A stretch of 64,000 nt of DNA from Hexactinellida sp. DTS-2022 (taxonomy: Eukaryota; Porifera; Hexactinellida). Every line of letters begins with the position of its first letter. Position 1 is the stretch's first letter. Below, piece by piece: positions 48,677 to 55,670 of this stretch. The position numbers were made by a program, and so were the translations under genes. The notes beneath the pieces are model-generated. The model did no database searches. It worked only from the letters and a program-made list of their open reading frames with translations, and was not told the DNA's origin. Where the stretch lies: NCBI GenBank assembly GCA_028753945.1, contig JAPNXP010000006.1:186001-250000 (forward strand), given 5' to 3'.

Positions 48677-48858
48677 TATTATTAACCATACTTTGGCAAC
48701 ATTTATACTCCCTATTGTTTGTCTATAATGGACATGCTTTGGACATGGTGAAACAACTATAATAACAACAACAACAACAACAACAACAACAATTTAGACA
48801 GGTTCTACTGTATTTCCTATCCCCTTCTAAGCCTTTAGTTATTAATAACAACTATTAA

Positions 48859-48876
48859 GGATGCTGAACGCGAAAA
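48859..48876 (+). repeat. left terminal inverted repeat of the TTAA transposon
   Basis: GGATGCTGAACGCGAAA, preceded by TTAA; matches the right end exactly over 17 bp. Confidence 0.9.
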
Positions 48877-49130
48877 TATGGTGAATTTAATGTTAACAAT
48901 GGAAATCGAGTTTATGCCTCCATGTTGTAGTTCAATAGCATAATTTTAACCTAGAAGTGTAATTTTCCAAAAATCAGATTTCTAGGAACTTCCCTGAGGC
49001 CATTTAGTGACGTCATTTTTATTGAAATGACCAAATATGGAGATATTTTACAATATTCTATGGTTTAAAGAAAATTTCATTATATATATATAGCATTCAA
49101 GTATCAGAATCGGATTATTATATATTTTAA

Positions 49131-49201
49131 GTCTTGGTGGACGTTTGGGTAGCGAACTGGCCAGGAGAGCGGGCAGCCCGGGTTCGAACCCCAGTCCTAA
49201 C
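49131..49201 (+). other. tRNA-like Pol III unit inside the transposon
   Basis: The 71 nt can be laid out as a complete tRNA: A-box-like TGGACGTTTGGG, a weak anticodon stem, a strong B box (GGGTTCGAACCCC) and a T stem with four of five pairs. The acceptor stem keeps only about four of seven pairs and the D stem is poor, so it is not a good tRNA gene. A T5 run at 49207-49211 could terminate Pol III. It may be a tRNA pseudogene or SINE head captured by the element. Confidence 0.45.
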
Positions 49202-49495
49202 AAATCTTTTTATCCAAAATTTTGTCAATTATCTAATCAAGTGATTACATCACGTACCTTGATACTTTCCTACGATACTGTTTTCAACATTGTAATGTGA
49301 AATGGTGTTTGCGGTTGTCAAACTGGATTTCTATTATTAGTTTACAAATCTACAAACAGGTTTTCACCGGTGTAGAGTTTGATTGAAAGGTATAAATACC
49401 AGGATTATTGGAATATCTCGTTTCAATTGCTAACTTTATTTCCTTCCAACTCCATTGTGTATTCTTTCTTCTATTTAGATTATTAGATCACTAGC

Positions 49496-51954
49496 ATGGC
49501 TTCGGCCTATTCTTCTTCCTCAGAAAGCGAAGGTTCAGAGGAACCTAACCGCATGTGGGAGCACGGTGATAGTTGCACCGAACATGAACGCTCCTCCCAC
49601 TCCGACATCGAGATTCCTCTGTCCTCCCCAATCTATTCTCCCGTCTCCTCCCAGTCCACTACTCCTGCACTAACCTCTCCGATGGCGAGCCTAGACGTTT
49701 CTTCTTCCCAACCATCAATATTCTTCGCCGAAACGTCCTATACTCCCACCATGAAACCTAGCGGACGTCCCAAAAAGGGAAGGAAATTCCACGGCAACCA
49801 ATTCCGATCCAAATCCCCACTACTCAGCTCCTCCCAGTCTTCAATTCAAACAACACCTCTAAAGCGCAAACATCCAGCGTTCAGACTCCAGAAACGAGGA
49901 TACTGCACTCATTTTACAACTCCACAGCCATCTAAGAAACGCCACGTTGAGTTCAGGACTCCAGAAGGTTGCATAACGACAAAACGCGCTGCAAAACCAA
50001 CAGGAATGCGCATTCTCGATATTGGGATTCTCGGTGAAGCAATTGGGAAACTGAGATGTAATAATTGCTCCTCCCCTCTATCGATTTATGAATCAGATTA
50101 TACTCACGGATGGCAAACAACCTACTCCATCAAATGCGATACCTGCCACCAACTATACGCAGAATTCCCTTCTTCTAAGCCCATGGATGTACCTCCTCAG
50201 TCGAGCTTTGTGAATGTTCAGGAGTCTCCCCGAGCAATGAACCAAGTCACTATGAGATCTGTGTTCGCCGTTCATTGTTCTGGATTCTCATGGCGTGATT
50301 TTCACAAATTTGCCACGATCTTTGACATGCCGCCTCCACTTGCTCACATGCCACCACGTTATTTGGATAAGATCGAGCGCACTGTGGAATTCGCTTGCCA
50401 AAGCAGTATGGACGCTGCCGCTAAAGAACTTCACTTCAAGGTCGCCGCAATACCATCTGCAGTACCTAATTGCATCAACATAGCAGTCAGTTTCGACAGT
50501 TCTTGGAAGACGCGCGGATTCTATTCCAACTTGGGTTTCGGTTCTGCAATCTCTGCCACCAGCAAGAAAGTTCTCGATTACGCACTCCTAAATCGTATCT
50601 GTGAGAAGTGCAATCGATGGAGCAGTAAACGCCAACAGGAAAATCCAGAGGTCTACCAACGGTGGTACGAAAGCCACAAGCACAACTGCTTCAAGAACTT
50701 CAGGCAATGGAACCGCACGCAGCCAAGCTTATTTGGAATCGATCAGTTGCTAAACACCAGCTCTGTTATTCCACCTTCATTGGAGACGGGGATTCCAAGT
50801 CATACCATCAAGTCGTTACCATGGATCCCTATCCACTAGTACCCATACACAAAGAGGAATGTCTTGCGCACGTGTCCAAACGCCTCAAGAAATCCCTTTG
50901 CAAGATAAAGAAAAACACAAAGGCCCAAAGTTATATCCAACACAAGTTACCCGAGCCTAAAGCTGAATACATATCCTCCAACTTCTCGACAGTGATCCTA
51001 CAGCACCGTGGAAAAACACCTTCACAAATGGCTAATGGACTTGATATCCTTTTGTCCCACGTAAGCGGAAAACACGACACCTGCCCTGCTGAATCTTGGT
51101 GCAGATGGAGAAATACTTCTACTGCTTCCCAACCAATACCTGCGAAGACTACTAACTATACCTCGCAAGATATCTCAAAAGTTAGAGAAGTATTCGCCAC
51201 TTTTGCCACTGAAGAGTTCTGTAAACACCTGACATTAGGAATGACTCAAAACGCGAACGAGTCTCTCCATAACATGATCTGGAACTTTTGTCCAAAATCG
51301 AAATACATCTCGCCTCAAAGCGTGCGAATCAGTACATCAATCGCTGTTACCATCTGCAATGACGGCGAACTGAGTCTATATGGTTTGTTGTCCGAACTAA
51401 ATCTAAATCCTTCCTATTCATCTTTTAGGTCGCTTTGCTCACGGGTGGAAACCAGGAGACAGCATCTTACTGACACCCGCAAGAAGAACATCGATCGCCG
51501 GACACGCAGACAAAGATTGATGAGAGAACGCCGAGAACGAGACCTACTCCGAGCTGAAGGTGGACGCAGTTATAAGTCAAGCTCTTTCGGTTCAGAAGTT
51601 ACCCCGAGACCACCCAAGACGATTCCTACTAGATCTCGAGCGCGAGGCAGAGGCAGGGGAAAATCACCATCGACCCGAGGAAAGGGAGTCAAACGCCGCC
51701 TGATCCCAGCTGACACCTCCGAGTCCTCCAACGAATCAGATGTTTCCACAGCTAGTGGAAGTTCCGATGGGGTTTGCGACATCTGTGAAAGACGTCAACC
51801 ACCGCCACAAACACACCGAACAATCTATGGGAAAGCAACGGTCCAATGGGTAGGATGTGACGACTGTGACCGCTGGTTCCACCAGTGCTGCACGGAATTA
51901 GATGATGACCAGGACGTGAGTACCATTGATTATAGATGTTATAACTGTTTATGA
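49496..51954 (+). CDS. DDE transposase with C-terminal PHD finger, broken by one frameshift
   Basis: Two overlapping frames make one protein. The first (ATG 49496, open to 50839) has a Ser-rich N-terminus, an AT-hook-like GRPKKGRKFHGNQF, a zinc knuckle (CNNC ... CDTC, about residues 190-222) and the first catalytic Asp in VSFDSSWKTRGF. The second frame holds IGDGDSKSYHQVV (second Asp), QNANESLHNMIWN (Glu) and a PHD finger (CDIC, CDDCDRWFHQCC, CYNC) ending at 51954. Homology moves from one frame to the other near 50695-50705, around CFKNF and AMEPHAAK, where a few codons may also be missing. It could be an inactivating mutation, a sequencing error or, less likely, programmed shifting. Confidence 0.85.
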
Positions 51955-52111
51955 AAAGTTATGCACAGTGATCTACCCTTTTAAAGCATTTTTTTATTTT
52001 TTTTTGATGCTTGGTAGATCATTTGATAATCACCATGACGGACACTTGTCCTGAACTTTGATTATCACGCCTTTTGATTGATTTTTTTATGCAAATCTCT
52101 CAAAACATAGG

Positions 52112-52168
52112 TGGTGTATTAAGCGAATGGTAGCTTAACTGATGAGTCCTTACCGGGATGAAACACCA
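52112..52168 (+). ncRNA. hammerhead ribozyme (type III topology) in the transposase 3' region
   Basis: All core elements are present. Stem III pairs TGGTGT (52112-52117) with ACACCA (52163-52168). The cleavage triplet is GTA, with the predicted cut after 52118. Stem I pairs TTAAGC (52119-52124) with GCTTAA (52133-52138). The conserved CTGATGA is at 52139-52145, stem II pairs GTCC (52146-52149) with GGAT (52156-52159), and GAAA is at 52160-52163. Loop I ends GGTA (52129-52132) and loop II contains TACC (52151-52154), so a 4-bp loop-loop contact is possible. It is on the transposase strand, ~160 nt after the stop codon. Confidence 0.85.
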
Positions 52169-52753
52169 ATAGATTTGTATGTATATTTGCTGAGATTAAT
52201 CGAAAAAACTTTGAACGCTTGTTTCTCAAAACACGGTTTTTTAGACTTTGGGAGGTTTTATGTCAAAACTTATTGAGTGGAATTAGTTAAAACTTTCAGA
52301 TATCCTTCTATACACTATAACTAATAAATTTGACCTTGATTGTAGAGATCCAACAATTTCTTCCTGTATATTTAACTCGTTTCAAGGCAAAATTGTCCAA
52401 ATTTGACCCCATTTTGACAAAACAGGGCATAAATAATTCCAGAATGGAAAGTAAGTGCGCTACAGTTCCAGTCAAGGTCAATTTTCTATTGCTAGTAATG
52501 ATGAATATACAGTATAATTTTTAGAACTTAAGCCCCAACAGTTTTTGCTGGAATTCCTCGAAAGGTTTTGATTCTATTGTATTACGTCAATGGGAAGCCA
52601 ATGCACACATTTTCTTATAGCATGCCAAAAATAGAATTCTCAGAAATGCTCTCAAGTACTAAATATCTTAGTTAGGGTCATAGATTTTATGTTTATAGTG
52701 ATTTAACATTAATTGAATAAAACTGTAGAAACTACCCATAGTACCTAATAGGA

Positions 52754-52770
52754 TTTCGCGTTCAGCATCC
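52754..52770 (-). repeat. right terminal inverted repeat of the TTAA transposon
   Basis: TTTCGCGTTCAGCATCC followed by TTAA. Confidence 0.9.
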
Positions 52771-52967
52771 TTAACACAAATTCGGATATTAGGAACATAT
52801 TTCGATGTTCCTTGGTAACGATTAAAATACTTTTAAAAGTACTTTTACTGTAAGGCTTTTATTACATAGAATTGAGTAGATATATATTCTATTATTATAT
52901 TTTATTAAAAATAATTATCATATTTGAATTATTGCATTTAATTGTTTTTGAAGGCTTTAATTAAGCA

Positions 52968-54065: not shown

Positions 54066-54199
54066 CTTTTTTGTGTTTGTTGCAACAGTTATCATTTCAT
54101 TATTTTATTTTTACATTATGGTTTTATTTTAGACAATGTTTGGGTATATACAGAATATCCTGTTTGTTTGTTTGTTTTATTTGTTTTTTTGTTTGTTGT

Positions 54200-54292
54200 T
54201 TGTTTGTTTGTTTGGTTGGTTGGTTGGTTGGTTGGTTGGTTGGTTGGTTGGTTGGTTGGTTGGTTGGTTGGTTGGTTGGTTGGTTAGTTGTC
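54200..54292. repeat. (GGTT)n microsatellite
   Basis: About 20 GGTT units follow a GTTT run between the hypothetical gene and NHL copy D. Confidence 0.9.
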
Positions 54293-54413
54293 GGTTAAAG
54301 TCAGTGAAATTAAAATTTATGTTTGTACGTAGTATTCAACCTATTTATTCAAACATTCGATTGTATTATAGCATTTTATTAAGCATTAATTTAATTGAGC
54401 AAAATGTCAGCAA

Positions 54414-55670
54414 TTATGCAGAAAATATTTGGAGTCCAAATTTGTTGTTTTCAGATACACAAATGAGTTTGTTGTTGTTGTTGATTACTAGGCCAGTAGG
54501 GTAGTGAAAAAATCCAGCTTCATTTCCTTCTTTCCCTATGGTGTGTAGTAGGTCTCCTTCGGGAGAGAATACCTTGATACTGTGTCCGTAGTAGTCGCTA
54601 ATGACGATGTTATTGCGTCCATCAAAACAGAAGAAGTATGGGTATTTCACTTGCATTCCATTACCACTGGCAACTAGGGAGCGGGACTTCTCTCCTGATA
54701 GTGTAAACACGTGGATACAGGGTTTGTCTTCACGGCTTAACACAAACATTTCACTGTTTGTGAATTTAACATCAACAGGTGATGTCATTGTTTGATGTCG
54801 TAGCGAGTCTTTGAAAGCTAGATCTGTGGACAGTATTTGGATTCTGTTGTTGTTTGTGTCTGGCACGTAGATGCGTTGATTGGGAGAGATGGCGAGTTGT
54901 CTCGGATAATTGAACTCTTCATTTCCAGATCCTTTCTTCCCTACTCGCTTTACCATTCTGAAATCTGGAAACTTGAATCGCAAGATAGCGTGTTGGTCTG
55001 TGTCCGTTACATAAATGCTATCCTGATGGAATAATATGCCCCATGGCCTTATCAAGTGTTGGTGGCTGAATTTGTTGACATAGACTCCTGTCTCAGAGAA
55101 TATTTGAATTCTTTTGTTGTCCAAATCCGCCACATAAATGTGTCCGGATTTCGTATCGATTGAGACACCTCTCGGCCAGTGAAAATCTCCAGGAGCTCTT
55201 CCTTGTTTCCCAACAGCAACAATGGGCTGTTGGAATGTGGCATAGTTTGGTATCGCTGGCACAGGAGGGATGGGAGGAGTCTCGAGTTGTAGAATCTCTC
55301 CCAGACGGGAGATACGTTCCTCTAGGTCCCGTGTGTCGCAGAGGTAGCTCACTTCTTGAGGTGGTGCTGCCACTTGCATTTCTGCCATTTTCGCTTCCAA
55401 ATCTGTTACTATTTTCTCCTGAAATGAATGCAGCAAATTGTGAGTCATTTGGCCTTCCAAAAATGCGCGGGTTTCGGTTATTTGTTGTTCCATTTGTTGA
55501 CGCGCCACCCGATTGGCTCGGATTTCCTCCCGTCTGTCCCTTAAGTCGGTCAACAGCTGGTGCCTTCTCTGCTCGAGAGAGCGTATCAACCTGTCTATCG
55601 ATTCATTGATTTGTATCGACACGGGGTCTACGATTGGCACTGGAATTAGCTCAGGTATTTGAGTCGCCAT
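54414..55670 (-). CDS. coiled-coil/NHL-repeat propeller protein, copy D
   Basis: Intronless, 418 residues, sister of copy C (28487-29737). The coiled-coil half differs at only a handful of positions. Propeller loops differ much more: KQGRAPGDFHWPRG against [25 protein letters not shown] against [11 protein letters not shown], and ISDYYGHSIKVF against [12 protein letters not shown]. Blades are clear: IYVTDTDQHAILRF, IYVPDTNNNRIQIL and MFVLSREDKPCIHVF. It ends FGLQIFSA. Role unknown. Confidence 0.85.
   Translation of the reverse strand: MATQIPELIPVPIVDPVSIQINESIDRLIRSLEQRRHQLLTDLRDRREEIRANRVARQQMEQQITETRAFLEGQMTHNLLHSFQEKIVTDLEAKMAEMQVAAPPQEVSYLCDTRDLEERISRLGEILQLETPPIPPVPAIPNYATFQQPIVAVGKQGRAPGDFHWPRGVSIDTKSGHIYVADLDNKRIQIFSETGVYVNKFSHQHLIRPWGILFHQDSIYVTDTDQHAILRFKFPDFRMVKRVGKKGSGNEEFNYPRQLAISPNQRIYVPDTNNNRIQILSTDLAFKDSLRHQTMTSPVDVKFTNSEMFVLSREDKPCIHVFTLSGEKSRSLVASGNGMQVKYPYFFCFDGRNNIVISDYYGHSIKVFSPEGDLLHTIGKEGNEAGFFHYPTGLVINNNNKLICVSENNKFGLQIFSA

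What the first reader, a model, noticed from the sequence alone, without database searches (positions are those of the whole stretch)
52112..52168. Complete hammerhead ribozyme motif, with a possible loop-loop pairing, in the 3' region of a DDE DNA transposon
Every invariant hammerhead nucleotide is present in the right order: NUH triplet GTA, CTGATGA and GAAA. Three helices of 6, 6 and 4 bp form, and loops I (GGTA) and II (TACC) can form four Watson-Crick pairs, the kind of contact that makes natural hammerheads fast. It sits ~160 nt after the transposase stop, on the same strand and inside the terminal repeats. Hammerheads in animals are known mainly from retroelements; cleavage here would detach the poly(A) tail or release an RNA from a cut-and-paste element.
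Basis: partly seen in the sequence, partly recalled or inferred. Interest (0 to 1): 0.93.

Follow-up and report, generated by a model that had tools for sequence, protein, structure and literature searches.

The report
Self-cutting RNA in a jumping gene
A cut-and-paste jumping gene in an unnamed, probably animal, genome carries just after its enzyme gene a conserved RNA motif that should cut its own messenger RNA at a fixed spot, a trick known mainly from elements that copy themselves through RNA.

Summary
The motif is real: a type III hammerhead with every core residue, the window's only descriptor hit, with none in 100 randomised windows. Rfam sees it weakly (19.3 bits, cut-off 48.5). It lies in a 3.92-kb, TTAA-ended DNA transposon with a Mutator-domain transposase. 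Five of six copies that carry transposase sequence and a readable 3' region keep it intact, although silent sites are saturated; short relatives mostly hold decayed forms (5 of 40 DNA matches intact). A second type was examined at 93 places; 12 lie downstream of more distant transposases on the same strand, far above random placement. Stems and loop contact covary between types. New: in five copies the RNA from stop codon to cut site folds closed, as a four-way junction in four, and its last five bases include the ribozyme's own 5' strand, so junction and ribozyme exclude each other. Best reading: the ribozyme trims transposase RNA about 160 nt after the stop and leaves a folded 3' end. Selection on a ribozyme is well supported; cutting and role are inferred. 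Seven paper searches showed no hammerhead in a DNA transposon.

The parts
48855..52774 (+). TTAA-ended DNA transposon with PF20700 (Mutator-like) transposase; 99.4% identical copy on C11 (L048)
48855..48875 (+). left terminal inverted repeat TTAAGGATGCTGAACGCGAAA
52754..52774 (-). right terminal inverted repeat, perfect complement of the left
49487..50839 (+). first open frame (stop to stop) of the transposase (PF20700, E 1.9e-20); the gene is split over two overlapping frames here, while L048 has one frame of 826 aa
50629..51954 (+). second open frame of the transposase (PF20700, E 9.1e-25; PHD-like finger near its end, 23.5 bits, just under the 24-bit cut-off)
51962..51966 (+). UGCAC, 5' strand of closing helix P1, 8-12 nt after the stop codon
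51967..52023 (+). arm A of the predicted four-way junction, with an oligo-U loop
52024..52067 (+). arm B of the predicted four-way junction
52068..52113 (+). arm C of the predicted four-way junction
52114..52118 (+). GUGUA: 3' strand of P1, whose first four bases also belong to the 5' strand of hammerhead stem III; ends at the expected cut
52112..52168 (+). type III hammerhead ribozyme; cleavage expected between 52118 and 52119
52129..52132 (+). loop I segment GGTA, can pair with 52151-52154
52151..52154 (+). loop II segment TACC
52323..52328 (+). AATAAA, first poly(A)-signal-like hexamer after the stop, downstream of the cut

Best explanation
A type III hammerhead ribozyme, kept by selection, sits in the 3' untranslated region of a TTAA-ended Mutator-domain DNA transposon. 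In the transcript it should cut about 160 nt after the transposase stop codon (shown: the structure, its conservation and its covariation; inferred: the cutting). The cut would separate the coding RNA from the downstream poly(A) signals and leave it ending exactly with GUGUA, which can pair with UGCAC just after the stop codon and close a four-way junction (predicted fold). That pairing uses the same strand as ribozyme stem III, so it could displace the downstream fragment, prevent re-joining and shield the new 3' end. The element would thus make the end of its own messenger RNA by ribozyme instead of, or in competition with, polyadenylation (inferred).
For: Intact motif in 5 of 6 copies with transposase sequence and a readable 3' region. 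Between the L048 and L050 transposases (65% aa identity, 820 codons) silent sites are saturated (pS 0.84; pN 0.22), yet the 57-nt hammerhead is 95% identical (window-L050) and 88% (window-L051); sliding-window identity is 0.67-0.88 between stop codon and hammerhead and mostly 0.3-0.7 after it. On alignment A4 (10 chosen sequences) 89.9% of cells pair against 27-40% when the partner strand is slid; 19 cells are changed on both sides (7.2 in shuffles) and the covariation score is 0.246 (0.094), each reached by 0 of 500 shuffles. Third loop-loop pair: C-G in 5, U-A in 3, G-C in 2 sequences. 12 of 93 second-type places lie 1.2-8.8 kb downstream of a related transposase on the same strand; on contig C11, 5 of 21 within 3 kb and 10 of 21 within 9 kb, random means 0.11 and 0.33, reached in 0 of 20,000; three copies share a spacing of exactly 1706 nt. 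The stop-to-cut RNA is closed in 5 of 5 copies against 4-9 of 500 shuffles each; z -6.2, -4.7, -5.0 for window, L050, L051. Forcing hammerhead stems I and III costs 2.3, 0.0, 2.3 and 3.2 kcal/mol in window, L050, L051, L049. AATAAA follows the cut in the five intact copies.
Against: No cleavage or expression data. Rfam scores below cut-off; L009-L012 and L048 gave no RF00008 match at E 1 in the larger searches. On A4 two measures do not stand out: pairs with a change on both sides 5 (shuffles 3.4; 56 of 500 as high) and further pair types 7 (7.9; 483 of 500); the fourth loop-loop pair is missing in 4 of 10. On A1 (16 sequences, decayed groups included) stem III pairs in only 30.7% of cells, and a slide of +3 columns scores nearly as high (0.100 against 0.111). 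Helix P1 never varies, so it has no covariation support, and the five copies are related. In L052 the RNA closes but the arms fold differently and the energy is ordinary (55 of 500 shuffles as stable). In window, L051 and L049 the junction without the hammerhead is the minimum-energy state, so it might hinder cleavage; none of the eight 77-nt second-type pieces folds into a complete hammerhead as its minimum-energy state. In L051 one AATAAA also precedes the cut. Element ends were not read for second-type copies. Nine transposase loci at 52% aa or less show no hammerhead within about 400 nt of the match, although two of them (L064, L065) have a pattern match 1.7-2.2 kb downstream.
Confidence: 0.55

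Rival explanations
1. The ribozyme is an off switch: cutting removes the poly(A) tail so that transposase RNA is degraded and transposition stays rare. Helix P1 would hold the ribozyme off, and a ribosome ending at the stop codon could open P1 and trigger the cut.
For: P1's 5' strand lies 8-12 nt after the stop codon in the window, within reach of a terminating ribosome (recalled footprint); P1 and stem III share a strand and are close in energy; the hammerhead in mammalian Clec2 3' UTRs is the nearest parallel seen in print (passages of PMC6155905).
Against: A strongly folded, closed 3' end is what one would expect for keeping an RNA, not for losing it; no expression data either way.
Confidence: 0.27
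2. The ribozyme serves a retrozyme-like RNA life cycle: the cut RNA is circularised or copied by the genome's reverse transcriptases.
For: Hammerheads of eukaryotic genomes are mostly tied to retroelements (passages of PMC7229834, PMC7761336); this genome also holds 64 RF00008 hits over the cut-off, read in L069 as repeats 486 nt apart.
Against: One descriptor hit in the window element, so no unit-length circle; it has terminal inverted repeats; only 2 of 93 second-type places lie within 10 kb of one of the 150 best-scored RVT_1 hits (of 608 candidates), both on the opposite strand.
Confidence: 0.07
3. The block is conserved as DNA, for example as a transposase or host-factor binding site, and the hammerhead is a by-product.
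For: CGGGATGAAACACC is kept in relatives that lack the 5' half of the motif (L027 group); hairpin arms are also DNA palindromes.
Against: Changes occur in compensating pairs in stems I and II and in the loop-loop contact; 0 descriptor hits in 100 randomised windows.
Confidence: 0.05
4. The hammerhead is the remnant of a retroelement inserted into one ancestral transposon.
For: Matches to related hammerhead cores occur in about 100 other places.
Against: Conservation is continuous from the stop codon through the hammerhead, and a second type accompanies more distant transposases.
Confidence: 0.04

Closest known systems
Type III hammerhead ribozymes of plant LTR retrozymes and viroid-like RNAs (Rfam RF00008)
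   Same: Core, order of parts, open stem III, stems I and II closed by interacting loops
   Different: Host element is a DNA transposon; the loop contact looks Watson-Crick (GGN:NCC), where plant type III loops use non-Watson-Crick contacts (PMC7936874, passages); far below the Rfam cut-off
Type III hammerheads of toad and termite HDV-like RNAs and the Drosophila pseudoobscura genomic hammerhead (PMC7936874, passages)
   Same: Type III with Watson-Crick loop-loop pseudoknot, in animals
   Different: Longer helices with an extra hairpin in helix I; in circular RNAs or genomic places without a recognised transposase gene in the passages seen
Minimal type I hammerheads of Penelope-like elements and Terminons (PMC7229834 and PMC6431247, passages)
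   Same: Hammerhead carried by an autonomous mobile element of eukaryotes
   Different: Type I, in reverse-transcriptase elements
Discontinuous hammerhead in Clec2 3' UTRs (PMC6155905, passages)
   Same: Atypical type III hammerhead in the 3' UTR of a protein-coding transcript
   Different: Very large helix I, in a host gene
Schistosoma W-elements (PMC8490949, passages)
   Same: Hammerheads reported active in repeats of an animal; one W-element has a 317-bp piece 81% identical to the Mutator-like transposon Curupira-1
   Different: No complete transposase frame was found there; the passages seen do not say that the Curupira-like piece and a hammerhead are in one element
RNase P-made 3' end of MALAT1 with its protective triple helix (recalled, not read)
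   Same: Working idea: a cut plus a structured 3' end instead of poly(A)
   Different: Cut by RNase P in a host non-coding RNA; no triple helix shown here

Membership tests
Hammerhead ribozyme, type III | Conserved core CUGANGA and GAA with A15.1-U16.1 pair and NUH cleavage triplet (core recalled; used as descriptor) | tested here: met
   GUA 52116-52118, CUGAUGA 52139-52145, GAAA 52160-52163
Hammerhead ribozyme, type III | Three helices, stem III open-ended | tested here: met
   stems of 6, 6 and 5 pairs counting G.U; stems I and II capped by loops
Hammerhead ribozyme, type III | Loop I-loop II contact | tested here: inconclusive
   GGTA:TACC can pair here and the third pair covaries across groups, but the contact itself is not shown
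Hammerhead ribozyme, type III | Reaches Rfam RF00008 gathering score 48.5 | tested here: not met
   19.3 bits; second type 20.8-27.3 bits
Hammerhead ribozyme, type III | Self-cleavage at NUH | not testable with these tools
   needs in vitro transcription
Mutator-like DNA transposon (PF20700) | Transposase domain | tested here: met
   73.6 and 87.8 bits in the two frames, cut-off 26.5
Mutator-like DNA transposon (PF20700) | Catalytic DDE/E residues | not tested
   no residue-level check was made
Mutator-like DNA transposon (PF20700) | Terminal inverted repeats | tested here: met
   21 bp, perfect
Mutator-like DNA transposon (PF20700) | 8-11 bp target-site duplication (recalled for Mutator) | tested here: not met
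   0 of 19 elements have 6 bp or more beside the ends; 17 of 19 begin and end with TTAA
Retrozyme | Two hammerheads flanking a unit that yields circular RNA | tested here: not met
   one descriptor hit in the window
Penelope-like element or Terminon | Reverse transcriptase with hammerhead in terminal repeats | tested here: not met
   the element's frames match transposase; of 93 second-type places none has one of the 150 best-scored RT hits within 10 kb on the same strand

The most novel reading that the evidence does not exclude
A lineage of DNA transposons finishes its transposase messenger RNA with its own ribozyme: the hammerhead cuts at a fixed place and the freed strand at once closes a four-way junction that becomes the 3' end, a ribozyme-made, poly(A)-independent mRNA end, possibly triggered by a ribosome at the stop codon.
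Probability: 0.3. Interest if true: 0.93.

Novelty: new variant of a known kind. Interest (0 to 1): 0.84.

Why it matters
Hammerheads in eukaryotic genomes are explained mainly by retroelements that move through RNA (passages of PMC7229834, PMC7761336 and PMC6155905). A cut-and-paste element has no obvious need of an RNA intermediate, so a conserved, covarying hammerhead in its transcript calls for another use: shaping or limiting the transposase messenger RNA. The strand shared by ribozyme and closing helix makes that testable with short transcripts, and similar cassettes may be missed elsewhere because they score below the Rfam cut-off.

Tried and rejected
Rfam at gathering score: nothing in the window. 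RNA models R1 and R2 were built, but the own genome takes no RNA model, so DNA and pattern searches replaced them and neither model was used in any search. A scan of viral contigs found no relative of the transposase. Host identification by a TRAF-like gene gave no species. Retroelement origin of the second type was tested by RT proximity and not supported. A target duplication of 6 bp or more was sought and not found in 19 elements. The L013, L024, L025 and L032 groups were examined as possible intact hammerheads; in register they lack U16.1 (or H17, depending on the gap) and are treated as decayed. The L014 and L027 groups keep only the 3' part and were left out of A1 and A4.

Rows dropped before counts: one search used 93 of the 100 places listed (103 counted there; 7 listed places belong to the window or L013 types, 3 places were not listed), the 65 best of 103 transposase rows and the 150 RT rows (150 scored of 608 candidates). 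One search used 21 of the 22 second-type places on C11 and 36 transposase rows there. These places are matches to the 3' half of the motif with up to 3 mismatches; only 10 of them were read in full (L071, L072, L085-L092), of which 8 pass the descriptor. A4 was given 10 chosen sequences: 8 intact and 2 of the L013 group. A1 was given 16. The survey L009-L047 plus window covers the 40 scored DNA matches (44 candidates).

Full report
Observation. The letters at 52112-52168 are as described. Reading 5' to 3': stem III strand TGGTGT, A52118, cut, stem I TTAAGC/GCTTAA with loop GAATGGTA, core CTGATGA, stem II GTCCT/GGGAT with loop TACC, GAA, stem III strand ACACCA. Energy folding returns the same stems, with no unusual stability. 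A descriptor with core, NUH triplet and minimum stems hits once in the window and never in 100 Markov-randomised windows. Rfam's RF00008 aligns all parts but scores 19.3 bits against a cut-off of 48.5.

The element. Perfect 21-bp inverted repeats lie at 48855-48875 and 52754-52774. A copy on C11 (L048) is 99.4% identical over 3.9 kb and has one frame of 826 aa; in the window the gene is split over two overlapping frames. Both frames match PF20700, Mutator-like transposase; a PHD-like finger near the end scores 23.5 bits, just under its cut-off of 24. Of 19 elements with both ends in view, 17 begin and end with TTAA and none has 6 bp or more duplicated beside that, so insertion at TTAA is likely; this is not the 8-11 bp duplication I recall for Mutator.

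Other copies. A search with 161 bases gave 40 scored matches. Five pass the descriptor: window, L009/L048, L010/L049, L011/L050, L012/L051; a pattern search of the genome finds the same five without mismatch and two more with 3 mismatches. L015/L052 breaks off inside the core, and the other 34 hold partial or decayed forms, many in elements too short for a transposase. L059, beside a 69% identical transposase, looks unrelated after about 40 nt (by eye). In L050 stem III grows to 8 bp but the first pair of stem II is U.U; in L051 the variable base 7 is changed and stem II begins with an A-U pair.

Selection. Transposases L048 and L050 share 65% of 820 codons; pS is 0.84, saturated, pN 0.22. Over the hammerhead, identity to the window is 95% (L050) and 88% (L051). 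In 57-base windows, identity is 0.67-0.88 from stop codon to hammerhead and mostly 0.3-0.7 after it. The well-conserved block ends with the ribozyme.

A second type. Pattern CTGANGAGTCCNTGCCGGGACGAAAC with up to 3 mismatches finds 103 places, none for the reversed control; at least 7 of them are the window or L013 types. Ten second-type places were read (L071, L072, L085-L092): GTGTA-TTGCG-loop with GGC-CGCAA-CTGACGA-GTCC-NGCC-GGGAC-GAAACAC; 8 of 10 pass the descriptor, L071 and L090 do not. Fourteen exact copies carry loop AGGCC. Of 93 places examined, 14 lie within 10 kb of a transposase: 12 downstream on the same strand, one upstream on the same strand, one on the opposite strand. Three, on C11, C12 and C18, sit exactly 1706 nt after the transposase match and share 500 identical bases downstream, so the hammerhead appears to travel with the element. 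On C11 random placement gave means of 0.11 and 0.33 against 5 and 10 of 21 observed within 3 and 9 kb. The transposases concerned are 42-53% identical to the window's. None of the 150 best-scored RT hits is a same-strand neighbour within 10 kb. I could not read the ends of these elements, and 79 of 93 places have no scored transposase of the 65 used within 10 kb.

Covariation. On A4, stem I changes A-U to G-C and A-U to C-G, stem II's first pair takes G-C, A-U, G-U, and the third loop-loop pair takes C-G, U-A, G-C. Covariation score and doubly changed cells exceed all 500 shuffles, but the number of doubly changed pairs (56 of 500 as high) and of further pair types (483 of 500) do not stand out, and these are few events in related sequences. 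Sliding the partner strand destroys the signal on A4; on A1, with decayed groups, a +3 slide scores nearly as well and stem III pairs in 30.7% of cells.

The junction. Alignment folding of stop codon to hammerhead (A3, five copies) proposed a helix between UGCAC at 51962-51966 and GUGUA at 52114-52118, enclosing three arms. Folding the window's stop-to-cut RNA alone gives this closed four-way junction with no unpaired base between helices (z -6.2). L050 gives the same form (z -4.7), L051 the same with single unpaired bases between arms (z -5.0), L049 the same form. L052, the broken copy, also closes but with other arms and ordinary energy (55 of 500 shuffles as stable). In all five the last five bases pair with the first fifteen; shuffles do so in 4-9 of 500. 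P1 does not vary, so it lacks covariation. P1 and stem III share GUGU; forcing stems I and III costs 0-3.2 kcal/mol in four copies, before any gain from the loop contact. In the second type a hairpin ACACT...AGTGT ending one base before the cut can form in 8 of 10 sequences read (not L072, L087; by eye) and is in the minimum-energy fold of 6 of the 8 folded pieces; none of those 8 folds is a complete hammerhead.

Mechanism. Shown: motif, conservation, covariation, association with transposases, competing pairing in predictions. Inferred: cleavage; separation from the AATAAA signals that follow in the five intact copies (the cut lies 159-164 nt after the stop codon there, after allowing for the copies whose frames were listed without their stop); capture of the 5' product by P1. 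Whether the cut RNA is stabilised or destroyed is open; I favour a made 3' end, with the off switch as main rival.

What is known. Passages of PMC7229834, PMC7761336, PMC6155905, PMC6431247, PMC7936874 and PMC8490949 place animal hammerheads in Penelope-like elements, Terminons, retrozymes, satellite-like repeats, HDV-like RNAs, introns and Clec2 3' UTRs. Ten paper searches were answered. Seven of them name a DNA transposon, transposon with Mutator, Mutator-like, or transposase together with hammerhead or ribozyme (22, 23, 62, 73, 74, 101, 102); in their listings (25 of 53 papers listed) I saw no report of a hammerhead in a DNA transposon. The nearest is the Schistosoma W-element paper. Most subscription papers are not held, so this is weak evidence of novelty.

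Noticed in passing
L069 120-173, 606-659, 845-898; L070 66-119; genome list: Strong RF00008 hammerheads (up to 64.3 bits; 64 of 68 scored hits over the cut-off), read in L069 as repeats 486 nt apart plus an inverted copy: retrozyme-like, but type III, whereas the passages of PMC7229834 describe animal retrozymes with type I.
   Followed up: partly
window 48855-52774 and L021, L026-L046 (19 elements): Mutator-domain elements and their short relatives begin and end with TTAA in 17 of 19 cases and show no longer target duplication, a piggyBac-like trait (recalled).
   Followed up: partly
window 51989-52005: Long oligo-U loop in arm A, present in the five aligned copies though its length varies; might bind a poly(A) tail or an RNA-binding protein.
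   Followed up: no
L013, L016, L017, L022, L023, L035, L037: Non-autonomous group with nearly complete hammerheads in which the loop pairing is mostly GGGA:TCCC but the cleavage-site register is off by one base.
   Followed up: partly
L093 17-67: Intron-like stretch (GTGAGT...TTGTAG) soon after the second-type hammerhead in the C12 element.
   Followed up: no
G000 C11:6704669 and 6711056; C11:8789734 and 8797305: Pairs of second-type hammerheads 6.4 and 7.6 kb apart on the same strand; meaning unknown.
   Followed up: no
L072 about 80-101 and L087: Both differ from the other second-type copies up to nearly the same base just before the hammerhead, next to a sequence that looks like a hAT end (recalled).
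   Followed up: no
window 54133-54504: Open frame with a run of GWLV repeats, a short tandem repeat.
   Followed up: no
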